From: Pseudoscleropodium purum
Lineage: Eukaryota; Streptophyta; Bryopsida; Hypnales; Brachytheciaceae
Length of the DNA stretch: 64,000 bases
Reading direction: 5' to 3'
Assembly: GCA_963969395.1 (NCBI GenBank)
Contig: OZ017796.1
Span: 18,044,501-18,108,500 of the forward strand
Positions within the stretch are counted from its first letter, which is position 1. Every line of letters starts with the position of its first letter. The notes under the pieces were generated by a model. That model ran no database searches. It saw only the letters and a list, made by a program, of their open reading frames with translations, and was not told the origin of the DNA. Positions 4,179 to 40,585 of the stretch are shown piece after piece. The position numbers were made by a program, and so were the translations under genes.

Positions 4179-4181
4179 TAA

Positions 4182-4536
4182 GGGGCGCTTCACACATGGG
4201 CCAACCAAGTCGAGAGGCCATAGGAGTTCATGGCCAAATTTTGGATGAGAGTCCAAAGAAATGGACAATAAATGGTAATAAATGGTAAAATTCAATGGAC
4301 TCTCGACTAAAGTTTGGGTCACGACAAAGTGGCGATCCAAACTTTGGTGGAGAGTTCGTCGCGAGGCTATCACCACGTAGGAGCTTGGGGCTGCCATGTA
4401 GGTAGTTTGGAAGGCAATGGACTTTGGAATATGCCACCTTGTATGAAGGGTCGAGAGGCCAAAGTCGGGATTTTCTTAAATGTGATTAGTGGAGGTTGAC
4501 AGATTCTTGACCTTTGGCCCATGTGTAAAGTAGCCC
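4182..4536. mobile_element. Tourist-like (PIF/Harbinger) MITE, copy 1
   Basis: A 355-bp element with terminal inverted repeats begins GGGGCGCTTCACACATGGG and ends with the inverse form GGCCCATGTGTAAAGTAGCCC minus its last base differences. It is flanked by TAA on both sides (4179-4181 and 4537-4539), the target typical of PIF/Harbinger. A second copy at 9399-9752 is about 85% identical by eye over its whole length. An internal inverted repeat near the middle (around ACTCTCGACT and its complement) gives a foldback structure. It has no coding capacity. Confidence 0.85.
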
Positions 4537-4588
4537 TAAGTGTGGAATATTTTAGTTTAGGGGTACCAGAAGTGAAGGTCAAATTTGA

Positions 4589-7261: not shown

Positions 7262-7800
7262 AGATGGTCCACGTAGATCAAGGAAATGATCCACCAAAAG
7301 ATCTACATGTGTACATGATAGCATGGCTAGTTAGACCAATTTGTGTGACTACTCTTCTTGTGGGTCATTTTCCTAGTTAATGCAAACCAAATTTTCAAGT
7401 AGAACCAAGGAAATGACTTACAAAAAGACCCACAAAAAGATCTACATGTGTACATGATAGTGTGGCTGGTTAGACCAATTTATGTGATTGTCTTCTTGTG
7501 GATCATTTTCCTAGTCAATGCAAACCAAATTTCTAAGTAGAATTAAGGAAATGATCTACAAAAAAGATTTATATGTATACATGATGGCATGGTTCATTAG
7601 AGTAATTTGTGTGACTACCCTTCATGTGGGTCATTTTCCTAGTCAATGCAAAACAAATTTCTAAATAGAACCAAGGAAATGACCCACAAAAAGATCCACC
7701 TATATATATATCATAACATGACTAGGTATAAACTAATTTATGTGAATGTCTTCTTGCGAGTCATTTTCAATCCTAGTCAAAGTAGACCAAATTTCTAAGC
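7262..7800. repeat. Tandem array, about 130 bp x4, each unit an imperfect palindrome
   Basis: The motif AAGGAAATGA recurs near 7280, 7407, 7545 and 7672, giving units of about 127-138 bp. Within each unit, CCAAGGAAATGACCCAC-like sequence is followed by its inverse (GTGGGTCATTTTCCTAG). The array is therefore a string of foldbacks separated by CAATGCAAACCAAATTT-like spacers. Confidence 0.8.
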
Positions 7801-9395: not shown

Positions 9396-9398
9396 TAA

Positions 9399-9752
9399 GG
9401 GGCGCTTCACACATGGGCCAACCAAGTCAAGAGGCCGTAGGAGTTCATGGCCAAACTTTGGGTGAGAGTCCAAAGAAATGGACAATAAATGGTAATAAAT
9501 GGTAAAGTTCGACGGACTCTCGACTAGAGTTTGGGTCACCATAAAGTGGAAACCCAAACTTTGGTCGAGAGTCTGTCACAAAGCCATTGCCATATACGAG
9601 CTTGGGTTTCCATGTAGACAGTTTGAAGGGCGATGGACTTTGGATTGTGCTGCCTTGTGTGAAGGGTCAAGAGGCCAAAGTCAAAGTTTTCTTAAATCTA
9701 ATTGGTGGAGGCCGACGGACTCTTGACCTTCACCCCATGTGTGAAGTGGCCC
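9399..9752. mobile_element. Tourist-like (PIF/Harbinger) MITE, copy 2
   Basis: A 354-bp sister of the element at 4182-4536, in the same orientation. It begins GGGGCGCTTCACACATGGG and ends CCCCATGTGTGAAGTGGCCC, with TAA duplications at 9396-9398 and 9753-9755. The internal hairpin is better preserved here: CTCTCGACTAGAGTTTGGGT is followed 14 bp later by its near-perfect inverse. The two copies differ by scattered substitutions, so they are not a recent local duplication. Confidence 0.87.
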
Positions 9753-9755
9753 TAA

Positions 9756-12159
9756 GTCTTCTTTTGTTTCAATGGTGGTAATCATCAAAATTATTCCACA
9801 CAAATGAAGAATTATCTTTGTTACAAGAGTTAGCTAGTCAAGAAAATAAGGAATATGGTCAAATACCTCAAGTCCTTTAGGGCTAAAGGATGGAGCCTAT
9901 AATATTGATGTTGTCAAACTCAATACCCTTTGCTTTGTAGATTCTATTACTTCACTAAATATCAATGGAACTTTCTAGTTTTTAATTTATTAGTAGATTC
10001 TTTTTTTTAGTGAGATGAATCACATGACTTCTATAAGTTATAAGAATCTCAAGTTTTTATGTGAAGATTTGAATTAGTAGGAAGATTGAAATTATTCTAA
10101 TTTTTTGAAGAAATGAGAAGAGATATTTATATCAAATAGAAAATATGCTTAAGAATCTAAAAAAATTCCCAAATGTATACACAATAGTATAAAACATCAA
10201 TTGAATGTGTTTAAAACAAAATTGCTCTAAGTCCCAACTATTGTGTTGTATATAATTTGAACAAAATAACATTAAATCAAGCATCTTTATATGCTCATTT
10301 TGTTCAAAGTGCCCCAAAGATATTTATATTTTGAATTTTTGACCCATGTTTTGATATATATTTTTCATATTGTATAATACATGAGAAAACTTGGGACTTA
10401 GAGTTCAAAATTTGATCTTTGCATTACAAAGCTCCAAATCCTACAATCACAAAATATTTATATTTGTTTCTACAACCCCCAAAAGTTGAAATTTGACTTG
10501 AACCAAGAGTTCAAGAAGTGGGAATTAGGATATACTAGTATGAAGCAACCAACAACGCTAGTATGTGAGCATGTGAGTCTAGAACCTAGAGCTTAGAAAT
10601 TTAGAATATAATGTAATTTCTAAATTTTTTTTGTTTAAATAGTTAAAAGATTGATGTTTTTTCATTAAAATTTATTATATTTAGAAAATATGACCTATTA
10701 CTATGGGACCCATGACCATGGATTTTAGATCTAGAAGCTTAAAAAGTTGATGTTGTTGCATGTTTTGAAATTTGTATTATGTTCTAAAAGGTCGTCATAA
10801 AGTGAGCTAATTAAGTGGGAGTACAAATAATTTAGAGGCAATTCTAAACTTGAGAGAAGGACAAATTCAATGGAAATATCACACTATTAGAAATGCATGA
10901 CCAAAACAATAGAAATTCAACTAATTTATGTTATTTGGGATAGTAGAATGACTATTTGTAACTTTTTGTGAAAATCAACAAAATGGCAAATTCTTTCTGT
11001 TGATTTGGATAATCCAATGACCAAATCAACAAATTTTTGTTGAATTTGGAATTAATTCAAATTAACATCAAGAACAAAAGAAAGACCAAAAAATTGAAAA
11101 AAATATGAAATGGAAAATAAAACTTGAGAAATGAACCTTAAATATGACTCCATTTAGAGCTTCAAAAGTGAAGTGAACTAAGTTCTTTACTGTGACTTTT
11201 GTTTGCCTTCAGCTACAATAAGATCTTGTTTGGAAACAAATTTTTCAAAATATGAGAACGGTTGCCTAGCAACACTTTGAATGTGATGAAGTTTGTAAAA
11301 AAGATTTATGAAAACATGGAAATTTTGGTTTCTTGTGGCAAGATAAGATTTATTGTATTATAATATGTGAAGTAAACATCAAACAAAACAAGGTAGAATA
11401 AAGACAATTGTAATGGTTCAAACCAAACAAGCTTTAGAAATTAAGAGATGAAATTTTAAAAAAATTAAAAATTAAAAATAAAGAATTACCAATTGACATT
11501 ATGTAATGTTACCAATATAGTTGCAATATATCTCTTGACCTCCAAAATAATACTTTCAATAATATAATGTCACATGAAGTCATTTACATAATTAGGTCTG
11601 ATAATAGGCAACCATGCTTGTAGACGATAGTTGCTATCCCACAATATAAATATCTTGTTAAAGAAAACTTTGAGATCTTTATTATTTTTCAATTCTTTCT
11701 CAAATGTGACATTTGCCTACACCTAGTTGGTATTCTACATTTCAATAATTAATATCATTTGTAACATCTACTATCTTCACTTCATTATTCTACAAAGCCA
11801 CATAGAAAACTCCATTTCCTTTGATATAACCATAAATAATAAAATTTGCAACTAAATCCATGGCATCATTCTTCAAAAAAGGCCTAACAACTAGCAAAAA
11901 AATCATATAATATTAAAGAATATTGATTTTTGATTTTGTTTTTAGTTGATACGTCGACCCCTCAAGACAAGAAGTGTTCATAGTCTCCTTTAAAAAGCCA
12001 TGCAACTCTAGCTGATCTTTAGAAAGAAGTTGAAGTATAGCATTTAATCTCTATGCTTGTAAATCTCTTTGTGTCAACATCTTTGAAATCAAATTTAAAT
12101 CAAGATTTAAAAAAATTCAGATTGTATATATGTATTGTACAACATGTAATTCAATGTAA
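9756..12159. other. AT-rich spacer without genes
   Basis: No credible exon or RNA gene. The CACTATTAGAAATG at about 10880 resembles a CACTA end but has no matching second end. Confidence 0.55.
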
Positions 12160-13750
12160 TAGTTATTAATGGCTATGCACTAGAAAAGCTCATAATTTTT
12201 AATATTTGACCAAATTCTAGCATATATTGTAAGTAAATTAGAATCTCTAAAACTATAGCCATTAATAGTTGTGCACTAGAAAGACCAATATAATTTTAGC
12301 ATTTGATCAAATTCTTGCACATGCTACAAGCAAATTTGAATCCTCCAAACTGTAAGCATAAATAGTTGTGCACTTGGAGGGCAAATTTCTTTTAACATTT
12401 GAACCAAATTTACGCATATGTTGCAAGCAACTTTGAATCCTTGAAACAGTAGCTATTAACGGTTGGGATCTAGGAAGGTCCAAAATTTTTTAGCATTTGA
12501 CTAATTCTTGCACATGCTAGAAACAAATTTGAATCCCCAAAACCATAGTTGTTAATGGCTAGGGGTCTAGGAAGGCCCAAAATTTTTTAGCATTTAACTA
12601 ATTTTGCATGTACAACAAACAAATTTGAATCCCAAAATTTTAGTCGTTAATAATTGGAGGTCTAAGAAGGCTAAAAAAATTTCAGCATTTAACTAATTTT
12701 TGCTTATACAACAAACAAATTTGAATCTCCAAAACCATAGTTATTAATGGCCGGGGGTCTAGGAAGGCCCAAAAAATATCAACATTTGACTCATTTTTGT
12801 ATACACACAAAACAAATTTGAATTTCCAAGACTATAGCCGTTAATGGCTGGGGGTCTAAGATGGCCCAAAAAATTTCAGCATTTGACTAATTCTTGCATA
12901 TGTTAGAAACAAATTTGAATCCCAAAGTTGGAGCCATTAATGGCTAGGGGTCTAGAAAGGCCCAAATTTTTATTAGCATTTAACTAATTTTTGCATGTAC
13001 AATAAACAAATTTGAATTTCCAAAACTGTAGCTGTTAATAGCTAGAGGTCTAAGAAGGCCCCAAAATTTTCATCATTTAACTAATTTTTGCATATACAAC
13101 AAACAAATTTGAATCTCCAAAATTGTAGTTGTTAACAACCGGGGGTCTAGGAAGGCCCAAAAAATTTCAACATTGCACTCATTTTTGCATACACATGAAA
13201 CAAATTTGAATCTCCAAAATTGTAGCCATTAACGACTGGAGGTTTAAGAAGGCTCAAAAAATTTATATATGTTGAAAACAAATTTGAATCCTCCAAACCG
13301 TAGCCATTAACAGCTGGGGATCTAAGTGGGCCCAAAAGAATTCAGCATTTGACCAAATTCTTGCATATACTACAAAAAAAATTTGAATCTCCATAATCAT
13401 AGCCATTAACAACTAGGGGTCTAAGATGGCCCAAAAAATTTCAGCATTTGACTAATTTTTGCATATGCTAAAAACAAATTTGAATCTCAAAAACCATAGC
13501 CATTAACGACTAAAGGTCTAGGAAGGCCCCAAAAATTTCAACATTTGACTAATTCTTGCATATGTTGGAAACAAATTTGAAACCCCAAAAATCTTAGCTG
13601 TTAACAACTAGGGGTTTAAGAAGGCCCCAAATTTTTTAGCATTTGATCAAATTTTTGCATATGCTACGAAGAAATTTGAATCCCCAAAACTATAGCCTTT
13701 AAAAGCTAGAATTTAAGAAGGCCCGAAAACATTTCAAGTTTTGACCACAT
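12160..13750. repeat. Satellite-like tandem array, about 97 bp x16
   Basis: The anchor AAATTTGAATC recurs at regular intervals (GAATC near 12241, 12338, 12435, 12531, 12627, 12723, 12820, 12917, 13013, 13111, 13209, 13287, 13385, 13482, 13579, 13678). The period is 96-99 bp, with one shortened unit of 78 bp before 13287. Each unit carries a conserved core like GTTAATGGCTAGGGGTCTAGG, then AAGGCCC and CATTTGACTAATTTTTGCAT. Units differ by 10-25%, and the first three are most diverged. It is non-coding. Confidence 0.92.
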
Positions 13751-15239: not shown

Positions 15240-16639
15240 GTTAACATCTTTTTTTTTTCTTCCTATTTTGTATCCTTAACTCTAAATTATAAACTATTTG
15301 AATAATGACTTTATTCATCATCTTTGCAAAAATTGAGAATAGAAGAACTAGTAGATGTCCCAACGTGCAACCTTAAAGAAATAATGCACTACAAATGGAT
15401 GCAAATTTCTGAAAAATGTAGATCTAAAATGTTAATTTCAACATGTGATGACTAGGTTTGAGTCTTTATGCACATGACCAACTATATAGCTTATCTTTGT
15501 GAGGGCCCTTCTAGAAAAGGCCCTTTAAAAAGGATTTGAAATTGAAGAAAGTTAAGGCATATAGAGATGGAAAGAAAATTGCAAACGCCATTAGTGAGAT
15601 TCTTGGAATAGAAGACATTTACACTCAAATTCCGCATTTAGAGATGGAAGAAGTATTCAAATCTAGCAAAATAAATTGAATCTTTTGATTGATTTTAAAG
15701 GTGATTCTCATCAACCCAAGAAGATTAACTTCTTTCATCTTTGGGTTCAAACTAAATTGGTCATTGCTAGAATGCATCTTTAGATTGTACATTTGAGGAG
15801 TTTAATACGGTCATACTCCATACTTTATCTATGGTGGAAACAAATAGCAATACATTGGAATGACACATAGTAAGAATTTCATACAAGTCAAAGAAACAAT
15901 ATCATACCATTTAAAAGTGCATACATGCCAAATGCAAGATATTGATTGTTAGGCACAAAAAATCCATTGTTGTCCCTACTTACAAAGGATAGAAGCATGA
16001 GAATAAGGACATGGCAATTCTAAGTAAGCCAATTTTTGGTTTTGCACAAACTAAATTACATGATACATCATGTAACCTAAGATTTTCCATATTTTTATCC
16101 AACTCGAGATCCCCACAATCTGGCATATTCTTAGTTCTTACTTATATCAACTTTATTTGTACCAAAATCATTAAGCTTCAAAAAGTTGGATTTTGCCTAC
16201 AGTCCACCAATCAAATGTCACCTTGACATTTAATCACTTTGTTTAGGATATTTGAACTTGTATTGTGAACTCATTCTTGACTAGCACATACTTAAAAAAT
16301 CTTCTTCATTTAAAATGGCAAGCAAGTTTGCCAAAGCAATAAGGCACCCATTGAAAATCACCAAAATCAGTGGAAGAGTGTAAAGAATGTTACCGTAAAT
16401 ATGATTAAGGTGAACTTCCTTTTTTGCCTTAGACTTAGTGCAATTATTACGCTTTTGTTTAGGACCAACCTTAATCAAGAGGTCTATAACATCACACTTT
16501 GCAATTTTCCATTTCATATTTGTCTTCATTATAGAAGTATGAATGGGAATGTTGCTCTATTATACATTACAATATTTTGTTTATTCTTGTACATCATTTA
16601 CTTTGTGCAACAAGAGTTGAAGAACACTTCTACTACAAT
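15240..16639. other. AT-rich spacer without recognisable genes
   Basis: Short frames at 16011-16226 and 16281-16529 resemble nothing I know and lack splice context. Confidence 0.5.
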
Positions 16640-16980
16640 CAGGGTTGACAGGATGGTCGGACGTCCGGGACGTCCGATCGAGGACGCTGTGTCCACAACG
16701 TCCGCTGACATTTGCAAGTCTAGCAGACGCAGCGTCCGCCTGGACCGCTTGACTGCTCTGACCGTTGACCATCTCCCCCATCCGCTTCCCCGACCGCCCT
16801 ATTCCAACCGTCCCGCGGTCGCCCGTCTGCCCATCCCGTCCGCCCATCTCGTCTGCCCCGCCCGTCCGCCGCGGCTGAGGCATCCGCTTTCCGACGGCGG
16901 AAACGACGCTGCGTCCGTGCGTCCGGACGTCCGGGTTACGGACGCCTTTTTCGGGCGGACGTAGAGATTCGTCAACCCTG
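16640..16980 (+). mobile_element. GC-rich hAT-type MITE, copy 1
   Basis: A 341-bp element with 11-bp terminal inverted repeats starts CAGGGTTGACA and ends GTCAACCCTG. It is flanked by the perfect 8-bp duplication ACTACAAT (16632-16639 and 16981-16988), the size made by hAT transposases. The inside is strikingly GC- and CpG-rich in AT-rich surroundings. It is built of palindromic GGACGTCC and GGACGC..GCGTCC motifs near the ends and degenerate CCGTCCGCC-like repeats in the middle. It has no transposase. Open frames that run into it are by-products of its base composition. Confidence 0.92.
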
Positions 16981-16988
16981 ACTACAAT

Positions 16989-19359
16989 TTAAGAAATTTT
17001 TGTGAAAAGTATCACAATTCATCAAATTAAACTCCAAGTGCAATTGATGAATGGGTCTCTAAAGTTGTTGATAGGATGAAGGTAGCTTCTCATTCATAAT
17101 TGAAGAAACAACTCTCAATAGCATATCCTAAGTACATCACAATTTTCTTAGAGCAAGTGAAGTGTCACTATGAAACTTATGATGAAAGTTTAAAGATGAC
17201 TTAAGAGAAGCTTTGGATGTTGGCAACTTTAACAATAAACACTTCTTTGAAGATCAAGTAACTAGAGATGTGAACAAGTCTTCTTCTTTTTGTAAGGCTT
17301 TCAAATTTCCTAAAGCAAAATTCAATGATATTGACTTTTCTAAGTAGCTCCATAAAGCTAAATGATTGATGAGCTCAAGTGAATACTTGTCTATTTTTAT
17401 TATTTAAATAATAATATTTTTGAACCTTTTTATTTAATCATTATATTATTCTAATTTAAATTCTGTATATGGTAGTTGGCTATTGAGACAAAAAAATCTT
17501 TTGATGTTGTGGTTGATCTGGGTGCATCTATTAACTATCTTTTAGATGGTATGGATCTTTTGTTCATTTTTTTGATTATATGGAGATAATGTATATATTG
17601 TTGTGGGATACTACATTCTTTTATAAATCGTGAGCCTTGAATCACACTTTATCACTAAACTTTATAAAATTCCATAAAGTGAAGTTTAACTTGGAATTAA
17701 ATCAAAATACTGCCATTTAAATTAATTATGTATATATACTATCTTTTAGAAATTATTATTATTTTTAAAAAAGGTAAAATTAAAAAAAAGACAATTAAAA
17801 AAAGAAAGACATTGATTAAAAAAATGATTATTTAAGTCATTTAGGATTAGTATGTTTATTTGGTGTATAACATATGACTACTATATTTATTTTAAATATT
17901 CAATATCCAAGATTTTTTATTTTTATTTTCAAGTATAGTTATAAAAATAAAATAAATTAGGTGGACCATTTTCATCCCTAAAATTTATATAAAGATCTAT
18001 AATGAAGACTACATTTATCACTTAATCATTCAAAAGCATTATTTATGATTTAGTGTTTATAATGTTTAAAGCCTTTGTTTATCACCATATTATATTCAGC
18101 CTTTACGATCTATGTTTGTTGCTCCTTCTATTTTAAACTTCATAAATGTCATTCCTATGATGTTGTTATGATGTATCCCAATTTTATATTTAAGTACTTT
18201 GTAGTGAGACATCTTAAACCATTACATTTATTTTTATCATGTACTTGCTTATAAACACTATTTATTTTGACTATATTTCAATTTTTGGAAATACATTTGT
18301 TCAATTTTTTGGTACAAAATTGCATTGTGGCATATTCATTTGTTGTTTATTTGGATTGAAAATCCTTATATCTAATTCCACAATCATAGGTTCTTGATGG
18401 ATATACAAACTCTAAATGGAACAAAAAAATGTAGGCTCATAGGCTCACAAATTCACGCTTACAAGCTCACATACTAGCATCCCCGTGAAGCAACCCCTAA
18501 TGTAGAATGACCCATTGTCATACCTTTGGTTGTAGCACATATTTAGATTGATTAAATTTACAAATTTTTTTTGCAATACAATGGTAAGTTGAATAATCCC
18601 TCTCATATATTTTGGTCAACTCATTTTTTAGTAGAAAAACACATATTATCGAGGGATCACCACAAGTACATATAGCTTTCTATTATTGATTTGCTAGGGG
18701 AAGACAATTTTCTTCTATGTAAATTCAAATATAGTTATTTTAATTCCCTATCTAGTTGACTAGAATGGTAATCCAAAAGTATACTTCAAGATTGTAGTAT
18801 AATGAATGATTGAACCTTTTGCCATGTATAGAAACCACATAGTGATATTCATTAAGGTTATAAAGCCATGACTTTTCAACCCCTCCAACCCCAATTCTAC
18901 ACTTGAGTTATAATAATGCCAAGCCTTTACAATTTGCACTACACTAGCATGCAATAGGGCACAATTGGAACCAAAAATAGTGATTGCAATTGGCCTATAG
19001 ATAATCTTGGATCTACATACCTTAATAAGAAGAATTGTGTTCAAATGCTCATTCAAACACTTAATTTTAGTGTAGTTGCCTGATTATAAAGATGTAGTAA
19101 TTACTATAGAACAAAATCATTATTATGAATTGAAATATCCTACATGGAGTTAGATTCAACATAAATCAAGTCATTTTTGTTAAAAAAAGAAAGTGCCACA
19201 TGTCATCTTGTAAATGGTATGAGGTGATGTGAACCTCCAAAAATTTGACGTGGAAATTCTATTTTGGATCTATGATAAAGTGCCACATTTAAACCTTCAT
19301 GTCTAAAAGTTACTTCACGTCTAGTTACTAAAAGCAACTACCTTGTGAAATACACACTA
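16989..19359. other. AT-rich spacer, possible unrecognised repeat debris
   Basis: No intact gene. The stretch 16990-17560 has fragments of open frame (for example VVVDLGASINYL near 17505) that could be retroelement protease-like debris. The evidence is too thin to annotate. Confidence 0.45.
19160..19302. repeat. Dispersed repeat, copy 2
   Basis: Counterpart of the repeat at 4589-4725, sharing AAAGTGCCACATGTCATC and GGAAATTCTATTTTGG in the same order and orientation. Confidence 0.6.
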
Positions 19360-19510
19360 TTGGTATGTACATTGAAGAAAGCAAAATATACTTGTGTGTT
19401 AGTAGAAGTTCAACTTTTCCTTCAACTACTTCTGCTTCAATTTATTGGGCTTTGAAGAAAGTAGTGCCAAATTATTAAAATCAATAATCTCAATACCAAT
19501 GCCCAAAGGG

Positions 19511-19757
19511 CATGGTTGACAAATCAGTATGTCCGCCCCAAAATAGCGTCTGTAACCTGGACGTCCGGACGTCCGTCCTCACGGACGCCAGAGGACGCAG
19601 CGTCCTTCCCGCCGTCGGAAGGCGGATGGGGCGGATAGGGCAGACGGGGTGGTCCTGGCGGACGCTGCGTCCGCCGGGACCGTGAATGTCAGAGGACGCT
19701 GCGGACACAACGTCCGCGTCCGGACGTCCCAGACGTCCCACCGTCTTGTCAACTTTG
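19511..19757 (-). mobile_element. GC-rich hAT-type MITE, copy 2 (internally shortened)
   Basis: A 247-bp member of the family at 16640-16980, in reverse orientation. The termini are CATGGTTGACA and TGTCAACTTTG, with a perfect 8-bp duplication CCAAAGGG (19503-19510 and 19758-19765). It retains the family 3' subterminal block (GGGCGGAC, AATAGCG) and 5' block (GACGTCC repeats). It lacks about 95 bp of the pyrimidine-rich middle. It interrupts the protease region of the minus-strand copia remnant. Confidence 0.92.
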
Positions 19758-21447
19758 CCAAAGGGTGTAAATTATCTTGTTTCTTAATATAATAGATCAC
19801 AAAGAGTGATGAATTTGGGGATTGGGTTTTGATAATACATGTATCATGTTGAAAAATAATAATAATGTGACTAGTTTTGGTGATTTGTGCGATTGAAAGA
19901 AGATTCCTAGTTAAACCAGAGACAAATAAAATGTCTAGAATAAACAAAGTTTGTCTTGTTGGGATTTATAAAAGGATGGAACCACATGTAGTGGCTTCAT
20001 ATGAGCAATTATCTCCAAGTATAATTACTCGAGGAGTAATAAGAGCTTGGTAATCCTACAATGGGGATAAATGGGGAGTCATATGTTGACTCGCACCAAA
20101 AATCCATGTACTAAAAAGATAATGATTGGGAATAGAGTCCATTGTACTAAAGAAGTAGCTTAGTGCATCATGGCTAAAGTGATTGCTGTGAGATTGAGTA
20201 GAGGGACTAGCTACTTGATCACGTTTCTTTTTCTTGTAGTCTGGTGACTTATGGCCAAGTATTCTGCAGTAGTGGTATATAATTGAGTAGGATGAATTTT
20301 GGGATGATGAAGTATTTGAAGTACTTTGAGAAGTAGGAGTGAATTTTAAAAGAGATGGTTTGCAACCTCATGAAGGTGGTTTGTTTCCAGACTGCTTTAT
20401 AAATTTTCCTTTCACATAGAAAGTGTAATTACTAGGTTTATTAATTTTGGTAGTGTTGGAATTATTAATCTCATCCTATTGAAGAATATTATATAATAAA
20501 TCCATAAAAGTTAGATTTGAGATTTTGCCTTGAGTTATAATAAATGGACTCCAACTATCAGATAAAGATGCTAGAAGAAAATTCACTTGTTGGGAATTAG
20601 TGAAATATAACTAGCAATGGTTGCTACTTGTAAGAGTGACTGCCAATTTTTCAAGAAAGACATAACATCTTTAATTTCAAACATTATTAGGCAACACATC
20701 TGCTTATGTAGGTTGACTTGACTGGCTTTGTTTGATTTTTTCATATACTTATTTAATGCAATTCCAAACTTCTTTGGAAGTTTTGAGTGGTCATAAATAA
20801 ATTAATTGCTTTTCTTTGCAATAAAGGAGTATGTCAGAGCGTACTTTTGAATCTTTCAGTTGCCAAGCTATGAGGCCCGCAACATTAGAAGAATCAATAG
20901 AAAATTCCAATCCATCTATAACAATCCAAAGCTCCAACCTTATAAGAAGCATTTGGATTTTTATGCTCTAAGTAGAATAATTGGCTGCAATAAGTGGGGG
21001 AATGTTGTATGCTCAAGATGCTCCATTTGAAGTTGTAGCCATTTTGAGGATCGATTGAAGATACTTTAAAGTTCTTGATTTAAAGATGAAAGAAGTGCTT
21101 AGGAATCTTCTTGAAAGAAGAACTAAAAATTAACTTCATTGCAGATATTTTCATAGGTTGCTAAAATAGTAAGATAACTAGAAGGAGCGTTAGAAATTTC
21201 ATATTCAATGTGTTCAACTTTTGGAGCAAATCTTGGAGTTAATTGTCCTAGGTCTTGAATTGGAATAGGATCTAAAGATATTTGAAAGAAGACTTCTACC
21301 AAGTTTCTATTTTGAATTGGAAGTGCTTCTTCCACTATTTCTCTTTCAAGCTCAAGAATTAAAAAATCATAGACATCCTCGCTTGTATTTTGAGTAGCAA
21401 GAGGAGTTGTAAGGAAGTACATGGTGCTTTGATACCATGTGAAGCAA

Positions 21448-21692
21448 CAGGGTTGAAGAATCTCTACGTCCGCCCAAAAAAGGCGTTCGTAACTCGAACG
21501 TCCGTCCGCACGGACGCCAACGGACGCAGTGTCCCTTCCGTCGTCAAAAGGCAGACGAGCGGGGCGGGGCGGACGGATGGGGCGGACAGGGCGGGACGAA
21601 CGGGCGGGCAGGGCGGACGGGGCGGATGGCGTCCGCGAATGTCTGCGGACACAGCGTCCGCGTCCGGACGTCCAACTGTCCTGTCAACCCTA
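21448..21692 (-). mobile_element. GC-rich hAT-type MITE, copy 3 (internally shortened)
   Basis: A 245-bp element in reverse orientation starts CAGGGTTGAAG and ends TGTCAACCCTA. It is flanked by the perfect 8-bp duplication TGAAGCAA (21440-21447 and 21693-21700). The middle on the plus strand is a run of G-tracts (about 21558-21630) with strong G-quadruplex potential. It sits within 10 bp of the LTR/primer-binding-site junction of the minus-strand copia remnant. Confidence 0.92.
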
Positions 21693-21916
21693 TGAAGCAA
21701 TAGTACTATGAAGTATTGATGAATATCAAGTAGAATGGTATATTAAATAATGATAATATAAATAACAAGTACAACCTTTTTTATAAGAAGGAGAAGACCA
21801 AGTTTTGATAAACAAAACGTTGTAATGCTTGAATCTATTTAATCAATTATTAGACTAATAGTAATCACTTTGAGAGCACCTTCCCTTATGTTGTGACTAA
21901 ACACCAATGCATATCT

Positions 21917-22326
21917 TGTTAAACAAACAAGTCACTATAGACACAGAGTTAAGGTTCACTAGAAAGAACTTGTATTTTTTTGGATTTTCCCGTCACTAAG
22001 TTGATTCGTTTTTCTAGACATCTAATGTAACAAGTTGTGTTTTTTTGGTCAACAATTTTGTCCACTATAACATGAAGATGTTATGGTGGACAAAATTGTT
22101 GACCAAAAAAACACAACTTGTTACATTAGATGTTTAGAAAAATGCATCAACTTAAACACGTGTTTCTTCTAGTGGTTCCATGTACATTACTCATCCATGA
22201 TGGCTAGTTAGGGTTAGTCTTATGATTTAGTTCTGTATATATTATGGGTTAATTCCCTTTTGTTAATTATCTTGAGCAGAAGCTCTAGTTAGAAATACTA
22301 GACAACATAGTTTGTAGTTTCCAACA
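21917..22326 (+). repeat. 5' LTR of copia element (interrupted by a MITE)
   Basis: Begins TGTTAAACAAACAAGTC and ends TAGTTTCCAACA. Removing the 218-bp MITE and its 3-bp duplication leaves 189 bp, equal to the 3' LTR. A TATATATTATGG motif that could be the promoter core is shared by both LTRs. Confidence 0.9.
21957..22174. mobile_element. CACTA-type foldback MITE inside the 5' LTR
   Basis: A 218-bp palindromic element starts CACTAGAAAGAAC and ends GTTTCTTCTAGTG. It is flanked by the 3-bp duplication GTT (21954-21956 and 22175-22177). The 3' LTR of the same retroelement has the uninterrupted site, which proves the insertion boundaries. The central stem (about 22018-22137) is almost perfect over roughly 58 bp with a 4-base loop, so a transcript would form a long double-stranded hairpin. 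Confidence 0.93.
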
Positions 22327-22341
22327 TGGTACCAAAGCTTG
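22327..22341 (+). other. Primer-binding site (tRNA-iMet type)
   Basis: TGGTACCAAAGCTTG directly follows the 5' LTR and differs in a few positions from the usual plant copia site TGGTATCAGAGC. Confidence 0.8.
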
Positions 22342-22445
22342 TAGACAACTTCTAGAAGTTAGAAAACACTAGAAGAGAGACAACTAGTTCTAGTTAGAAT
22401 CACTAGATTGACAATATGTCGTAATGTCTCAAACGTCACTTGTCA

Positions 22446-23740
22446 ATGAATTCGGAAAACATGGATCCCAATATTCAAGACATTGTTGAATTGATGAAGC
22501 TGGTAGGACCATCAAACTATGAGATTTGGAATTACAAAGTACGTATGATTCTGATGCAAGAGGGATTGTGGAGATTTGTAGAACCAAAAGCTCAAGAAGT
22601 CAATAGCGGCAATTCATCCGCAATAAGCTACACAACCACTGAAGCAAGGTTGACACGACGTCCGGACGCGGACGTCCGGATGTGGACGCTGTGTCCCCAG
22701 CGTCCGCTGACATTTGCGTCCCGGCGGACGCAGCGTCCGCCTGTCCCTCGTCCGCCCCGTCTGCCCGTCCGCCTGTCCGTTCGTCCGCCCGATTACGGCC
22801 GTCCGATCGACGCGCGGACTGATCTGGTCCGCACGATTTGGGTGTTCGCCTCGAGCCGTCCGCCCCGTCCGTCCGCCCCACCCCGCTTGTCCGCTTTCCA
22901 ACGGCGGTCGGGATGCTGCATCCGATAGCGTCCGGACGTCCGGAAAACGGACGCTATTTTGGGGCGGATGTTGACATTTGTCAACCCTGCACTGAAGTGC
23001 AAATCTTTGGACTTGCTCTTGATGTCGTTGTTAGTCAAGTCAATATGACATCTTCATGTACAAACAATGAACTACAATTTAGAGTTGGTCGCATATTCAT
23101 CTCCATGGTACATGACTCTACATTGTTGTCAATTATTCACCTCACTAATCCTCAGACTATCTAGCAACGATTGAGGCACATGTGCAATATTTGTAGTTCT
23201 TCATGTTGATTAGTTCTCAAGGAACAATTTTATTCTCTTAGAATGGCAAAAGGGAAGGCAATTAGTGACCATCTTCAAGAAATAAACTTGCTAGTTACAT
23301 AACTAGCAAATCTAGGCATCACTATTTTTGTCAAAGATATGGTAGACATCACTCTCAACAGTTTGCCGAAAAGCTAGGCTACATTCTACATAATTCAGAA
23401 AGGAAGAGAGTGAGTTCCAAACTTTCCAAAGTTGGAAGGTCTCTTATTACAAGAAGAATTGGGTAGATCATTAGAAAAGAAAAGAAACAACATTGAGGAA
23501 CTAAATATGATCCGAGAAAATTGGAATTCTAGTAGAGGACATGGATGTACCTCTCAAGGTTGTGATACTTATTGAGACAACCACCAATCGCATGAAGGTT
23601 AGTCTCACTTCAACGATACAAAACACGCTGTTATGTGCCACAAATGTGGCAAACCCAATCATTATGCCCACAACTGTGCTCACATCACACTTCAGGAATA
23701 GATCAAGAATCTTCAACTTCAGCTTATCAGCTTGAAATGA
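22446..23740 (+). pseudogene. gag: Broken copia gag
   Basis: The ATG at 22446 opens a frame reading MNSENMDPNIQDIVELMK and then GPSNYEIWNYKVRMILMQEG, typical of the copia gag polyprotein N-terminus. After about 66 codons the frame is cut by hAT copy 4. Downstream gag text continues with many stops to a CCHC zinc knuckle, CHKCGKPNHYAHNC, at 23636-23677. The knuckle has the proper C-x2-C-x4-H-x4-C spacing. Confidence 0.85.
22645..22989 (+). mobile_element. GC-rich hAT-type MITE, copy 4 (inside copia gag)
   Basis: A 345-bp element with termini CAAGGTTGACA and TGTCAACCCTG and a perfect 8-bp duplication CACTGAAG (22637-22644 and 22990-22997). It has the same orientation and full-length structure as copy 1, with many intact CpGs. 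It splits the gag region, so it inserted after the retroelement. Long open frames across it, up to 162 codons, are low-complexity artefacts. Confidence 0.93.
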
Positions 23741-28031: not shown

Positions 28032-31000
28032 ACATCTACACCAACTTGGCAACCTCATTGCAAGAAAATTTCATTAAGTAACAGAAAAAATTTAGATCTT
28101 GGATTTTGAGGGCTAGCATTGTGATTTTTATGCATGAAACTCACTTTAAAAAATGACTTGCTTTTATTTTCACACATTAGAAATCTTGCTATAGACTTCA
28201 AAAATGTCATCTACTAAAGAATGTTAGTATTTGCAAAGTTGTAAGTTGCTAAGATCACTTTTATAATCAAGCTCTAGTCAAAAATCTAAAAACCACAAGA
28301 ACTAGTTCTTATAAACATTTTTACAATCTAATTTTGTTTCAAAAAAACTAAAAAATTTCTAAGAAATTGAAGGACACTTTACACTTGAAACTAAGTCAAG
28401 AAAATCAAAAGTTATAAGCACATTTCTTGGTCTAAGTATGAGACCAATGGGAGTGTTTTGAGTTTTTGTTTTTTTCACTCAATCCTAAGTTTCAATTGTA
28501 AGTGATTTTGAAAATTCCCTAAAAATTTTGAAAAAGAAAAAAATGATTCTTATTGAAGATATTTTAATGTGGAAAAAATTAAAAGAAATAAAAATAGAAA
28601 TAAAACCAATTACTTTTGAATGTTTTTACCATAGAACATTTGCATGATATTCTTGATTTGGGAAACTAGAAAGACCTACAATGTTACTATACCAAAAATG
28701 ATTCTTCTTACAATGACCTTCAAATCATAGGCAAGTTTTAATTCTATATAATTATATAGTGAAAGGAGCCTCCAATCATTGGTTGCAAAGAATCCCAACT
28801 ATGAAATTCAAGAATATTATGTGTACTTTAAGTCAAAACTTTTTTATAAGGAAATAGATGCTAAGGGCCTTGCCTTTTCTATGTTGGAGGTATATAAGAT
28901 TAGCTATACTCTTACTAAAAAACTATCATCAAAATCCTATCTAAAATTGATAGTGACAAATTATATATTTAAAAAATTATGTGAAAATTAAATGAAATCA
29001 CCAAAACATCACAAGTAATTATAAATTTGTCAAAATTTATATGATGCTTACAAACAATAGGAAATAAGGTGGATGGACATACATAAATGATATTTATATC
29101 CATCTTATTTCCTATTGTTTGTAAACTTTAACCCCTAAAGGACCATTATGCATTTTTTGGCTATGTAGCAATTTTGGAGAGGTATGTGTGATTGGAGATT
29201 TCCACATTTTTGGCCCAAATTTAATGGAAGGTAGGGAGAAGGAGTATCTTTCATATGCAATAAATTCCATGGCATTTGGAAATATAAGTCAAAAGTTATG
29301 GCCTAATATACTATTTTTTTTTTTTTTTTCATAAAATGGGCAAATCTGGACAAATTAGGACAAATCAAGAAATTTTATTTCTCTTAAAAATAAAAATTTG
29401 AAATTGGTTCTAAAATCATATATACATGGAAATCTTTGAATCATTCCATTTTGATCAATGAGTTAAAAGTTATGAGGATTTTTTGTTTGCAGGTATTTAT
29501 AAATTGTATTTACAAATTGTCTACTCTAAAATAAACTTTGAAGTCTTTTATCTTACTCAATTTTTAATATTTTTAGAAAAAATAAAATTATAGGATGTAG
29601 ATTATTTATTACAACATTGCAACCATTGAGATTGGCATTTTTCAATTCCATAATGGAATTCTTAATAATTTCATATTTTAAATCAATCTCTACTATTGTC
29701 TATTTATTACTTTTTTCCTATATGTTGTAAAATTCCAATTTCCAAATGATTTGGAAATTTTCAAGTATGTAAAAAACTTGTCTAAAAAAGAAATCCAAAA
29801 AAGCACTACCATTTAGGGCATTCTTTTTTTTTAAATAGAAAACTATAGCTACCTTGTTTTTTTATAGGGCCAAAAAAATGATTTTTGTAAATTTCAATGC
29901 TTATATTTTGCAATCCACATTGTGGAAATTTTTGAAATTTTTATCACATGTTCTCAAGTCAACATACTACAAGATCCCATAATCATATGTGTCATAAAAA
30001 GTTTGAAAAATAAAATTCAATACTTGTACTAAAAATGGCAATTTTTGAGCATTTTTGGTGAAAACATAGTCATAGAGCTTTAGAGATCAAACATCAATGG
30101 GAGTTTAATGAAAAATATATAATTGGAAAGAATAAATGATTATCCTAATCCATCAACATTCCTAGGTGCATATTATAGTATATGAAATCTTCTAAAGCAA
30201 TAATTTGCTCAAAATTGTGAAAAATAATACAATTTTTTTGGAGGAATTTAACTAAAGAAAAATATCTTGGTTTCCTTTGTTACTTTCTCAATCATGGATG
30301 AATTATTTTCAATTGCTACAAAATCTTGATATAGTATCTTTGGGGGATGAAGAAAAGACATTTCATTCATTTCTACAAGTTTCATCTATGTCCATGGTTG
30401 TAGTTAGCTCTTAAATGCTCAACCATCTATTCTATGGATGATATACGTTTGGAAAAGGAACTAGGGACCAAATAAAAGGTGACATTTTATGATATTTAGA
30501 ATAACTTTAACATCAATGAATTCAAAGAATATTCTACATGAATGAATGAATAAGATATTTAGGAGAGTTCTTCTTTTTTATTATAATATTTATGGGACTT
30601 TTAAAATATTTATTTTTACTCATTTCATCTAAAGAACACTTTCTATGTGGCCCAAATTAAAGTAAATAGAATCCTTCACTCTATCCAAAAAAGTATAAAA
30701 AAATCTCTTCTATTTATCCATTAAAAAGACAATTGTTGCAATAAAAGTCATGATGTGACATGCTTACACCAAATGTCCAAATTCAATGCAAAGCAAGGTT
30801 TGTAAGACTTTTTTTTTTTTTGAAACCTATGAACACTTTGTTGTTGTGAGAAACAAACTTTGGAGTACACAACTCCACAAGTTAGACTTTTCACTTTTGT
30901 CATGCCACAAAAATATTGCACTAAACACTCTCATTAGATCGCTCCACACTATTTTCTCAACATTTTACACTAATTTATGTAATCAATAAAATGATGAATG

Positions 31001-36200: not shown

Positions 36201-39200
36201 ATCAAATTCAATGTCATCTTACAATTCTCTAAAGACAATTTGTCACTGACATACATGATGTCTGCTGGTTTCTTGCAGAGCCTGTTTTTTGGCCAGTGTT
36301 TGTGATAGCGACGTTGGCCTCAATTGTAGGGAGCCAAGCAGTCATCTCTGCAACGTTTTCCATTATAAATCAATGTATGGCACTGGGATGCTTCCCACGG
36401 GTCAAAGTGGTGCACACCTCCAGTAACATTTATGGACAGATCTACATCCCGGAGATCAACTGGATAATGTTACTACTCTGCCTAGCTCTGACTATCGGTT
36501 TCCAGGACGTCATTGAGATCGGAAATGCCTACGGTATATACAGTCCTTTTCTCTTCTTCCATTCAAGTTGCTTGATTTCTTTCAATACGGTAGTTCTCAT
36601 TTCAAATTGACGAAAGGTTTTCAGATTTGGTCCATGAGTGCCTGTCCTGAGTTCCCAAGTAGTTCACCACCCATATGCCAACAGCCTACACTCATCAAGT
36701 TTGTGCCAGAAAAGTATTCTTGTCATGTAGTACATCATTCATGCATAAACTAAGTTCTCTACAGTAGACGTTGTGCAATAGTGAGCTGGTCACCAGTTTT
36801 CAGAGCTCTCGGCACCTGGAAGTATTAGTTTTCAGATTTTTGAGCACTTGGAATGTCACACTCTGAAATCGGTCGTTCTAACCCACCCTTTTTTAACTCC
36901 CAAATCCATTTTCGAATATTGCATAGTTTTTACTTTACATATCTCTTAGTTCAAATATATTACTTACCTCAATTCATCACATTGGCTATTAAAGAAAGTT
37001 GCTTTTTACAGATACAAGCATCTCTTCGGATTTCTTTAGACGAAACGTCACCCCGAAGCACAATTTTCCAGAATATGGAACTTGGGGCGCTTAGGGGTTA
37101 ACAAGTTTACTCCTACAGTGAATTGGTTCATCTAGTCCTCATATTCATTTGAGTAAAATATTTTCCCTGACCGAGACCCATGCTGCGGCACTCAACACTA
37201 ATCTATGAGGTGTGCACAACCTCGTAATTATATATTCGTCAAAGTAGTAGATTTCAGTGAGATTTGCACAGTTGCAGGTGTCTGACACAGGAAATTCATA
37301 TGGTCCTGTGGTGAGCTTTCTTTACAGAAAAGATCAATATGGCCATATTCTGAGCTTTGAAACAGGAAAAATCAATATAACCATGCGCTGAGTTTTGAAG
37401 CAGGAAATTCATATGACCACATGCTGAACTTTCTTTACAGGAACTGCAAATAACCTTATGTTGATAAACTGTCGTCTATTTGGCTGCTTGTAGGTATCGC
37501 CGTGATTATAGTGATGCTGGTGACGACATTTCTGATGACCCTGGTGATCATAACAGTCTGGCAACGCAGCACCGTCCTGGCTTTGCTGTTCTGCTCGGTG
37601 TTTGGCTCCGTGGAGCTTCTGTATTTGTCCACTGCACTGAACAAGGTCCCTCAGGGAGGCTGGGTGCCGCTGGTGATTGCGGGTGTGTTCATGACGGCCA
37701 TGTACGTGTGGCATTACGGCACCATCAAGAAATACGAGTACGACCTCCAGAACAAGGTTTCCATGAAGTGGTTGCTGGAGCTCGGTTCCAGTCTGGGCAT
37801 GGTGCGGGTCCCGGGCATTGGCTTGATCTACACGGACCTCGTCAGTGGCGTGCCTGCGATTTTCTCCCACTTTGTGACGAACTTGCCCGCGTTTCATGAG
37901 GTGCTGGTGTTTGTTTGCATGAAGTCGGCTCCTGTGCCGTTTGTTACACAAGACGAACGATATTTGATTGGACGCATTGGACCCAAGGAATTTCACATGT
38001 ACAGGTATGCCGCAGTATCACTTACAGCTAGGTAGAACCTCAATTCTGTTAAATGGGAGTTATTCCATGCGCCATTTTGATATTTACAATAGCTTGCTGT
38101 GCCGATAGATATGAAAATTGTTATGAAAATTTCATTTAATGCACAACATTGTGCACCGAGATGCTAGGATATCCACCCCTCCCCCCATCCCAGAGCCCTA
38201 AAACATCTCAATTCCTCCTTGGCTTGAGGGTCTCTGCGCCATTTCAATGGAATAGAGTCAATTCAACGAAATTGGCGTTCTAGATAAGTATACCCTTGGG
38301 AATCATCTAGTATACATTCTCAGAATAAAAGCTTATAGATCCAGATTTTTACTATGTTAGTTTGAATAAACTGGACGAGCTGCATTTAGGAGGCAAACTA
38401 CTGACACGCTCGTGCAAACCCCTTCTTGAAACAACATCAAACAAACAACGGCTGGATGCATGTTGGTTCCTCAAGGGATTTGCACTTGTGACATAAAATG
38501 AAGGCCGTCAATTACATAGAGTTGGCGTGATTCTGGGCGTCAAAAACTGTGGAATTCGTCTGGCCAAAGCTCTGCAAAACTATTGGTATAGATTTACGTT
38601 TCGTGGAATTCCGCCAATTTAACGAATTGAAGTTGAAAGCTAATAACGCAATGCGGTTCTCTAGAAGCCTGATATTGCATAACCTTTGGGTCATAATTAC
38701 CACCTCTTGATTTTACTAGGAGTAAAGTAAGTATTCATAGACTGGTGCATAGTTTAACTCTTGTTAAAACAAAATTTAATAAATAACAGATGGATGTTTT
38801 TTCTACAGAGCGTTTACACGAGGGACATATCAATAAAGTAAAGCAATGTAGCCTAAACTTAATTGCGTAACATTTGGTCCTTTGTTACCAACTCTTGACT
38901 TACAGATGACCATGGTTTCTGTTGCTTCATGAAAATTGTGGGCATGGGAAAGAGAAGATGCATCCTCTTCACAGCTAGCTAATGAATGCGATGCACATGT
39001 CACCGGATTCGATTTGATTTTAATCATCTTCTACACAACTTTCTGTTCTTTTGTTTTGTTTTCTTATGTTGTTGTTCATGCTTCCCTGCAATTTTGAGAA
39101 TTCTGTGCACAACGAATGAGCTCTAGGGATATGATCATGCAGGTGTGTGGTGCGGTATGGATACAAAGATGTACGCAGGGACGAGAATGACTTTGAGAAC

Positions 39201-40585
39201 CAACTGGTAGCCAATCTGGCGGAGTTCATCCAAAGCGAAGAGACCGTCATGGAGTTCAGCCAAGAGTTGGATCCGTTTTCCAGCAACGAACTGAGTTACG
39301 AAGGGCACTTGATTGTCATGGGGACGACTCCTTCATTGCTTCGGAGACAAGAGTCTGTCACAATGGAGGACAGCATTAGATCCATGAGCATATCCGACGA
39401 TGGCGATCGATTGCAGGTAACCAATAAATCCTCACTCTTTAATAAATTTATTCAACATTTTAGAGCATCATTTGGCCCCAGACTGAAGGGGACGAGACCA
39501 ATTGCATCAACACAACCCCCATCTAATATGAAACAAACTTTGAGTACATTCCTATGTACAATGTTTTCTGCTACTCAAAAATTGAGCCTTCATCCCTAAT
39601 GTGAAATCAACTACTTACTCAAAGCAGCTACACAATGAGCTCAAAAGAGACACTAAGTGTCTCATCCACTATGAATGCACTACCTTACAAAGTCTCTCGT
39701 CGCTCCGTAGTTGAACAACAGAAGGATAGAGTCGCTTGTAAGTTGCGTAGTTGATTGTTTCATTAGTGTTGTAGACACAAGCCACAGTTATAGCTGAAGT
39801 GACAGTATGCTCATGCTTTTTATTTAAGAATGGGGTCTTAGGATTGAGTATAGATACTTTTTTGGACTGAAGTGTGTTACCTTTACTTTAGTTTGAAAGT
39901 ACCTTGAAATGGGTTGAGTTGGTTCGTATGCAGAGTGTTTCTGCTACTCAATAAGTTAAATCTACAGTGCAGCTACACAATGAAATAAAGCTACAAAACC
40001 TCTTATAGTCTCGTAGCTGCAACTACAAGGACACAACCTCTTCTAGTGCAGCTTCTTGTTTCATTTGACACGTCACAAAGTTAGTGAAATGAGCCAGTTT
40101 GAGTAGGTTCTTATGAACAGTGCCGTGTTGCTGTTCAACATCTTTTGTAAAGCTACATGATTGCCTCACGTAGCTTTGTAGCTGCACCACAAAAGGTACA
40201 CAGATGTTAGTTTCATTAGTGTTGGTGACTTCTGAACATGTCTTTTTTGTGGCTTCTGCAGTCTACAGATTGGTTTCAGTCATCGCCTGGTTTTGTTCCC
40301 AAGAGAAGGGTGCGGTTTGACATTCCTATGAGCGACTCTGATGATGAATCCACCCGGATGGATGTTCACAAGGCACTGATGATTCTTTCCAAAGCAAAAG
40401 ATGCAGGCATTGCTTACATCATGAGCCATCCGTATGTGAAGGCAAAGAAGTCATCCACCCTTGTGAAAAAGTGTACTATTAATTATGTATACACTTTTTT
40501 GAGGAAAAACAGTCGAGACCCAGCTATTGTCTTCAATATCCCACACACCAGCCTTATAGAGGTGGGCATGTTTTACTATGTTTAG
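33207..40585 (+). CDS. KUP: HAK/KUP/KT potassium transporter
   Basis: A plant K+ uptake or redistribution transporter with about 12 membrane segments, at the plasma membrane or tonoplast. Exons: 33207-33239, 33729-33981, 34221-34469, 34701-34751, 35315-35575, 35695-35747, 36021-36135, 36279-36533, 37494-38004, 39143-39416, 40262-40585. They sum to 2379 nt, giving 792 residues with consistent phases, normal for the family. Signatures: [15 protein letters not shown] (residues 32-46), [82 protein letters not shown], and a C-terminal [12 protein letters not shown] followed by a cytosolic tail ending [11 protein letters not shown]. The short first exon ([11 protein letters not shown]) is the least certain; it fits splice phase and is the only suitable upstream ATG I see. 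The gene looks intact. Confidence 0.95.
37280..37450 (+). repeat. Short tandem repeats in KUP intron 8
   Basis: Segments like CAGGAAATTCATATG, then CTGAGCTTTCTTTACAG, recur three times at about 50-60 bp spacing just before the acceptor of exon 9 (37493). They carry decoy TTTACAG acceptors. Confidence 0.6.
39440..40250 (+). repeat. Diverged repeats in KUP intron 10
   Basis: Blocks containing TTCTGCTACTCAA and GCAGCTACACAATGA recur near 39570-39640 and 39940-39990, with a further relative near 40110. TTTCATTAGTGTTG recurs near 39759 and 40210. The intron seems to have grown by internal duplication. Confidence 0.5.

What the first reader, a model, noticed from the sequence alone, without database searches (positions are those of the whole stretch)
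16640..22989. A GC- and CpG-rich hAT MITE family, four copies in 6.4 kb of AT-rich DNA
Copies at 16640-16980, 19511-19757, 21448-21692 and 22645-22989 share CAGGGTTGACA-type ends and each has a perfect, different 8-bp duplication (ACTACAAT, CCAAAGGG, TGAAGCAA, CACTGAAG). All belong to one hAT-mobilised family. MITEs are normally AT-rich. These are dominated by GGACGTCC palindromes, GGACGC..GCGTCC pairs and CCGTCCGCC-like pyrimidine repeats. CpGs are retained, although the host retroelement LTRs show many C/T and G/A changes. The family therefore looks young, unmethylated, or selected for its motifs. The dense subterminal palindromes could be transposase-binding sites, or islands that recruit or repel chromatin factors.
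Basis: partly seen in the sequence, partly recalled or inferred. Interest (0 to 1): 0.75.

Follow-up and report, generated by a model that had tools for sequence, protein, structure and literature searches.

The report
GC-rich offshoots of kinase-bearing transposon
The four GC-rich repeats are real, and are shrunken copies of a jumping gene from a moss-like plant that, besides its own transposition enzyme, carries a protein-kinase-like gene, which is unusual for this kind of element.

Summary
All four copies, ends and 8-bp duplications are where stated; a search of the rest of the window found no more. The host is a 313-Mb land-plant genome, probably a moss. It holds 4165 exact CAGGGTTGACA ends against 41 for the reversed pattern. 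Of 68 sampled ends, 58 pair with an opposite end and a duplication matching at 7 or 8 of 8 bases, against 0-1 in shifted controls.

The autonomous-type source was found. Nine of nine 9.5-9.8-kb elements checked have the same ends and 8-bp duplications. They carry two divergent genes: a hAT transposase and a protein-kinase-like protein. The MITEs are the two ends with the middle deleted.

GC-richness comes from a CGGACG/CGTCCG repeat, about 10 per MITE. In the element it is confined to both ends and to blocks upstream of both genes. This fits hAT subterminal transposase-binding repeats, perhaps also autoregulation.

'Young or unmethylated' is not supported: copies are about 77% alike, and CpG transitions run at twice the non-CpG rate. 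Novelty lies in the kinase-bearing partner.

The parts
16640..16980 (+). MITE copy 1 (341 bp). 16669-16820 matches the kinase-side end and 16836-16980 the hAT-side end of autonomous-type element E1
16632..16639 (.). 8-bp target duplication ACTACAAT, left
16981..16988 (.). 8-bp target duplication ACTACAAT, right
19511..19757 (-). MITE copy 2 (247 bp), reverse orientation; 19511-19630 matches the hAT-side end, 19611-19728 the kinase-side end of E1 (the two matches overlap in the shared repeat)
19503..19510 (.). 8-bp target duplication CCAAAGGG, left
19758..19765 (.). 8-bp target duplication CCAAAGGG, right
21448..21692 (-). MITE copy 3 (245 bp), reverse orientation; 21448-21608 matches the hAT-side end, 21574-21672 the kinase-side end of E1 (the two matches overlap in the shared repeat)
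21440..21447 (.). 8-bp target duplication TGAAGCAA, left
21693..21700 (.). 8-bp target duplication TGAAGCAA, right
22645..22989 (+). MITE copy 4 (345 bp); 22645-22779 matches the kinase-side end, 22856-22989 the hAT-side end of E1; the 76 bp between have no collinear match to E1's ends
22637..22644 (.). 8-bp target duplication CACTGAAG, left
22990..22997 (.). 8-bp target duplication CACTGAAG, right
22659..22668 (.). CGTCCGGACG palindrome just inside the TIR of copy 4 (two CGTCCG/CGGACG units head to head); the same site is a perfect palindrome in 4 of 7 long elements checked

Best explanation
The four copies belong to a family of probably several thousand non-autonomous hAT elements (MITEs). 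They are internal-deletion derivatives of a 9.5-9.8-kb autonomous-type hAT element. That element carries two divergently oriented genes: a hAT transposase (DUF659 + Dimer_Tnp_hAT, with a weak BED-like N-terminus) and a protein-kinase-fold protein (505-codon open frame). Each MITE is little more than the element's two subterminal regions of about 150-180 bp. These are built of a CGGACG/CGTCCG repeat, partly in palindromic pairs, so the MITE is GC- and CpG-rich in an AT-rich host. Shown: shared TIRs and subterminal sequence, 8-bp duplications, linkage of both genes to the ends. Inferred: the transposase binds the CGGACG repeats, as BED domains bind subterminal repeats in Hermes, and mobilises the MITEs in trans; and the same repeats upstream of both genes let the transposase regulate its own element.
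Against: No binding or transposition data. The BED finger scores below Pfam's cut-off (14.8 against 20.6 bits). In E1 the transposase reads as two open frames: an intron or damage. 50 of the 85 listed kinase hits carry stops, and many hAT hits do too. Copy 4's middle has no collinear match in E1's ends, so another subfamily may be the direct parent. Of 68 exact ends sampled, 10 had no short-range partner with a duplication; two of these are ends of E1 and E2. In Hermes, mutating the inner putative BED sites left ~70% activity and the right end is bound by no BED domain (and abstract), so not every repeat need be a working site.
Confidence: 0.85

Rival explanations
1. The GC-rich CGGACG repeats are CpG-island-like promoter or chromatin elements, selected to keep the DNA open or to recruit host factors; transposase binding is secondary.
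For: The same repeat blocks lie upstream of both genes of the element. Pooled CpG o/e is 1.32 in MITEs against 0.47 in flanks.
Against: CpGs decay about twice as fast as other C/G positions, which suggests methylation. The repeat sits at the element tips and forms palindromes close to the TIR more often than shuffled sequence, the layout reported for Hermes and Tol2 ends.
Confidence: 0.2
2. The kinase gene is a passenger: a host gene captured once and copied along, with no role in transposition.
For: No hAT that I know of needs a kinase of its own (recalled). dN/dS between 7 copies is only moderately low, 0.28-0.86. No hAT homologue in the 71 listed bears a moss name, so linkage in a named second moss is not shown.
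Against: Divergent orientation and near-constant spacing in 22 of 23 pairs. Forty homologues (P0001 and relatives 26-80% identical to it) keep K217, E236, D334, N339 and D357. One of the two clusters named from Ceratodon has 126 member sequences, as a mobile gene would. It has the same repeat-bearing upstream block as the transposase gene.
Confidence: 0.4
3. The copies are an independent GC-rich family that happens to share hAT ends, not derivatives of the two-gene element.
For: Copies align to E1's ends at only 68-84%, and copy 4's centre has no collinear match.
Against: Similarity runs well past the TIR (99-161 bp per side), in the same order, in all four copies.
Confidence: 0.07

Closest known systems
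Ac/Ds of maize (hAT; PMC3260210 seen in a search listing only, rest recalled)
   Same: Autonomous hAT plus shorter elements sharing an 11-bp TIR and some subterminal repeats; 8-bp duplications
   Different: Ac has one gene (recalled); here a second, kinase-like gene is present and the repeat is the GC-rich CGGACG
Hermes and Tol2 (hAT), subterminal repeat/BED recognition (PMC10368747, passages seen)
   Same: Palindromic repeat pair just inside one TIR; end requirement of ~150-220 bp
   Different: Their repeat is AAGT/C; here it is CGGACG and binding is not tested
CGG-binding proteins from hAT transposons (PMC8097297, abstract and opening text seen)
   Same: hAT-type DNA-binding domains that usually prefer CGG or CGC trinucleotides
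   Different: Those are domesticated host proteins, not an element's own transposase
GC-rich PIF/Harbinger MITE in Setaria Sh1 (PMC6060267, passages seen)
   Same: A plant MITE with 66% GC, so GC-rich MITEs have precedent
   Different: Different superfamily; one insertion is described there
Two-gene DNA transposons (MuDR, Spm/CACTA, PIF/Harbinger; recalled)
   Same: Transposase plus a second element gene
   Different: Their second genes are not protein kinases, and the superfamilies differ (recalled)

Membership tests
hAT superfamily | 8-bp target-site duplication | tested here: met
   58 of 68 sampled ends; 9 of 9 long elements; 4 of 4 window copies
hAT superfamily | Short TIRs of the CAGGG... 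type | tested here: met
hAT superfamily | hAT C-terminal dimerisation domain in the partner transposase | tested here: met
   PF05699 36.8 bits and PF04937 77.3 bits, both above cut-off
hAT superfamily | BED zinc finger at the N-terminus | tested here: inconclusive
   14.8 bits, below the 20.6 cut-off
hAT superfamily | Catalytic DDE triad | not tested
   Likely residues seen by eye only in the translation
MITE | Short, non-coding, high copy number, TIR and duplication shared with an autonomous-type element | tested here: met
MITE | AT-rich body (usual, not defining) | tested here: not met
   Median GC 0.654 of 61 elements
Protein kinase fold (second gene) | Sequence profile match | tested here: inconclusive
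   E1 copy 21.0 bits, below the PF00069 cut-off of 31.7; 39 of 40 homologues match at E<=0.01
Protein kinase fold (second gene) | Kinase fold | tested here: met
Protein kinase fold (second gene) | Kinase catalytic residues | tested here: met
   K217, E236, D334, N339 and D357 invariant in 40 homologues; their roles assigned by eye
Protein kinase fold (second gene) | Phosphotransfer activity | not testable with these tools
   needs an assay

The most novel reading that the evidence does not exclude
A hAT lineage of mosses carries its own protein kinase as a working part of the transposition system. Transposase and kinase genes sit behind upstream blocks that contain the same CGGACG repeats as the ends, so transposase level, phosphorylation state and end recognition form one self-regulating circuit. 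Thousands of GC-rich MITEs then act as decoys for the same DNA-binding protein.
Probability: 0.3. Interest if true: 0.82.

Novelty: new variant of a known kind. Interest (0 to 1): 0.62.

Why it matters
hAT elements are usually one-gene transposons (recalled). A high-copy hAT with a linked, conserved kinase gene would be a new architecture and would make transposon-encoded control by phosphorylation testable. It also gives a simple reason why a MITE can be GC-rich: it is nearly all binding-site array. Five searches for a kinase-bearing hAT gave no title or abstract start describing one; the 16 papers listed were not opened, and only the open-licence PMC library was searched.

Tried and rejected
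Taking the 30 highest-scoring hAT loci as partners (L009-L038): no TIR pair with a duplication, but these loci have only ~1.5 kb of flank, too little to hold both ends. At one mismatch only L033 and L036 show an end; the L033 match lies inside a coding stretch and was taken as chance.

Reading the internal GC-rich blocks of the long element as nested MITEs: rejected, because flanks are collinear between copies and no end pair with a duplication was found. TIR-like matches with 2 mismatches occur in 4 of 10 upstream regions. In E3 a + and a - match flank the block, but without a duplication, and the + match lies in a TTTAGGG-like stretch that the other four also have.

'CpGs retained because unmethylated': rejected. 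Against a consensus the bias is weaker (C->T 11.7% at CG, 9.6% CHG, 8.4% CHH; G->A 12.4, 11.1, 6.4%), an estimate confounded by subfamilies.

Selection on the kinase: dN/dS 0.28-0.86 among 7 copies, all picked from hits without stops; variable codons 88 nonsynonymous to 44 synonymous. The neutral ratio ~3.4 printed there is my estimate, not computed. Suggestive only. 35 of 85 listed kinase hits have no stop.

Species: among rbcL hits of normal length the top one is a cluster named for the moss Fissidens schmidii (95%). A 713-aa fusion from an unnamed eukprot record is 96% identical, and the seed-plant hits of normal length that I looked at are 91-93% (best 120 rows listed). 'Moss' rests mainly on two kinase clusters named Ceratodon purpureus. 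No hAT homologue has a moss name. Species not identified.

Rows dropped or chosen: 3 of 61 elements with GC below 0.5, and L001 as a duplicate of copy 1, were left out of the alignment; L068_646 (53% identity) was left out of later counts. L001-L008 came from a search with copy 1, so they lean towards it; the others were anchored on exact ends. Of the 100 places listed, regions up to about C1:2.95 Mb were fetched. One search used 126 of the 150 hAT hits, leaving out 24 of the higher-scoring ones. Of the 64 kinase homologues, 40, mostly near full length, were aligned. Ends were fetched for 9 of the 22 divergent pairs. The VIA-align rows span residues 169-499 at most; the helical N-terminal part was not searched alone.
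Full report
Observation. The four copies are real and exactly placed, with perfect 8-bp duplications. Their GC is 0.64-0.67. In 61 elements with duplications from the fetched loci (one of them window copy 1), median GC is 0.654 and pooled CpG o/e 1.32; their flanks have median GC 0.333 and pooled CpG o/e 0.47. Copies 1 and 4 lie in one orientation, 2 and 3 in the other. With the copies masked, no other copy was found in the window at E<=1e-3.

Family size. The host assembly is 313 Mb in 52 contigs. The exact 11-mer CAGGGTTGACA occurs 2063 + 2102 times; the same pattern read backwards occurs 26 + 15 times. In 40 fetched C1 regions, 58 of 68 exact ends belong to an 80-700-bp element with a duplication of at least 7/8, and 49 of 68 with 8/8. 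Moving the compared flanks by 1, 3, 8, 12 or 20 bases gave 0, 0, 0, 1 and 0. Two of the four window copies have no exact end, so exact counts miss part of the family. A 25-base hAT-side end occurs 328 + 327 times exactly, control 0. Duplications lean to T at position 2 (24 of 51) and A at position 7 (23 of 51), the pattern I recall for Ac-type hATs.

The autonomous-type partner. A hAT hit on C1 lay near two exact ends. The element E1 runs from C1:2680608 to 2690152 with duplication GGCGGGAC and is itself inserted in a MITE-like copy. It contains a transposase (DUF659 77.3 bits; Dimer_Tnp_hAT 36.8 bits), split over two open frames, and divergently a 505-codon open frame with a weak protein-kinase match (21.0 bits). 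The kinase frame has 85 listed matches and the transposase core 125; both lists are capped. Of the 85 kinase and 126 hAT hits compared, 23 pairs lie within 15 kb where about 1 is expected, and 22 are divergent. I fetched the ends of nine of these: 9 of 9 have both TIRs and an 8-bp duplication, 8 perfect and 1 with one mismatch; lengths are 9496-9797 bp. Two of the nine (E1, E8) sit inside MITE-like copies. On C1, whose 25-mer ends are all listed, such an end lies at a near-constant distance and in the right orientation for 10 of 27 hAT hits and 8 of 13 kinase hits, with 0.12 and 0.11 expected. This test overlaps the former in E1, E2 and E5. The misses may be mutated ends or broken elements; I did not check them.

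MITEs as deletion derivatives. Each window copy aligns, in order, to both 200-bp ends of E1 over 99-161 bp at 68-84%. The middle of the element is missing. In copies 2 and 3 the two matches overlap in the shared repeat; in copy 4, 76 bp in the middle have no collinear match.

Why GC-rich. The strongest 6-mer is CGGACG/CGTCCG: 620 in 60 copies, about 61 expected from a first-order Markov model. In E1 it occurs 7 times in each terminal 200 bp, 7 times in a 200-bp block upstream of the kinase gene, 6 times in one upstream of the transposase gene, and 0-1 times per 200 bp elsewhere; apart from these blocks GC is 0.21-0.48. The ends of other elements hold 5-6 copies on the kinase side (5 ends) and 4-9 on the hAT side (7 ends) in up to 200 bp. 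Upstream regions of five elements hold 7, 14, 12, 14 and 15 copies (kinase) and 7, 6, 4, 3 and 8 (hAT), in a GC-rich block with collinear flanks. Just inside the kinase-side TIR lies CGTCCGGACG, two motif units head to head, perfect in 4 of 7 long elements checked. A perfect palindrome of at least 8 nt starts in the first 60 nt of 43 of 60 MITE copies on the kinase side and 35 of 60 on the hAT side, against about 14 each after shuffling. Hermes and Tol2 are reported to have such a palindrome of AAGT-type repeats next to the left TIR (PMC10368747), and hAT-derived DNA-binding domains usually prefer CGG or CGC (PMC8097297). I infer that CGGACG is the transposase's subterminal binding site. Binding was not tested, the BED finger is below cut-off, and in Hermes not all such repeats are needed.

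CpG. The o/e is high because the repeat contains CpG. CpGs are not spared: in 14 disjoint nearest pairs, transitions hit 205 of 1104 CpG positions (18.6%) and 135 of 1396 other C/G positions (9.7%). The one LTR pair in the window shows 15 of 26 and 31 of 160, so the bias there may be stronger, but numbers are small. Copies are not very young (median pairwise identity 77%).

Novelty. GC-rich MITEs have precedent (Setaria, 66% GC, PMC6060267). Searches for GC-rich MITEs or MITEs in mosses otherwise listed nothing that by title looked like this family. Searches for a kinase-bearing hAT listed 0, 2, 0, 6 and 8 papers; none looked like it by title or abstract start, and I did not open them. Subscription papers and repeat databases were not searchable. 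I rate it a new variant of a known kind.

Noticed in passing
12165-13745: Degenerate tandem array with a 97-bp unit and higher-order 194- and 388-bp periods.
   Followed up: no
7284-7699: Tandem repeat with a ~138-bp unit, about 3 copies.
   Followed up: no
21997-22154: Near-perfect palindrome (77-nt arms, 95% complementary, 4 nt between), possibly another MITE type.
   Followed up: no
4179-4541 and 9396-9757: Direct repeat pair, 85% identical, probably LTRs of one element; 46 of 54 base differences are C/T or G/A.
   Followed up: partly
29386-29692 and 48765-49062: Inverted pair of ~310-bp dispersed repeats, 78% identical.
   Followed up: no
22425-22928: MITE copy 4 interrupts an open frame that looks by eye like a Copia-type gag; identity not tested.
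   Followed up: no
37454-38035 and 39135-39599: Open frames that look by eye like exons of a HAK/KUP potassium transporter; not tested.
   Followed up: no
L005:2868-3155: A 288-bp element with similar ends, perfect duplication CCTAAAAC and GC 0.49: a less GC-rich relative or another family.
   Followed up: no
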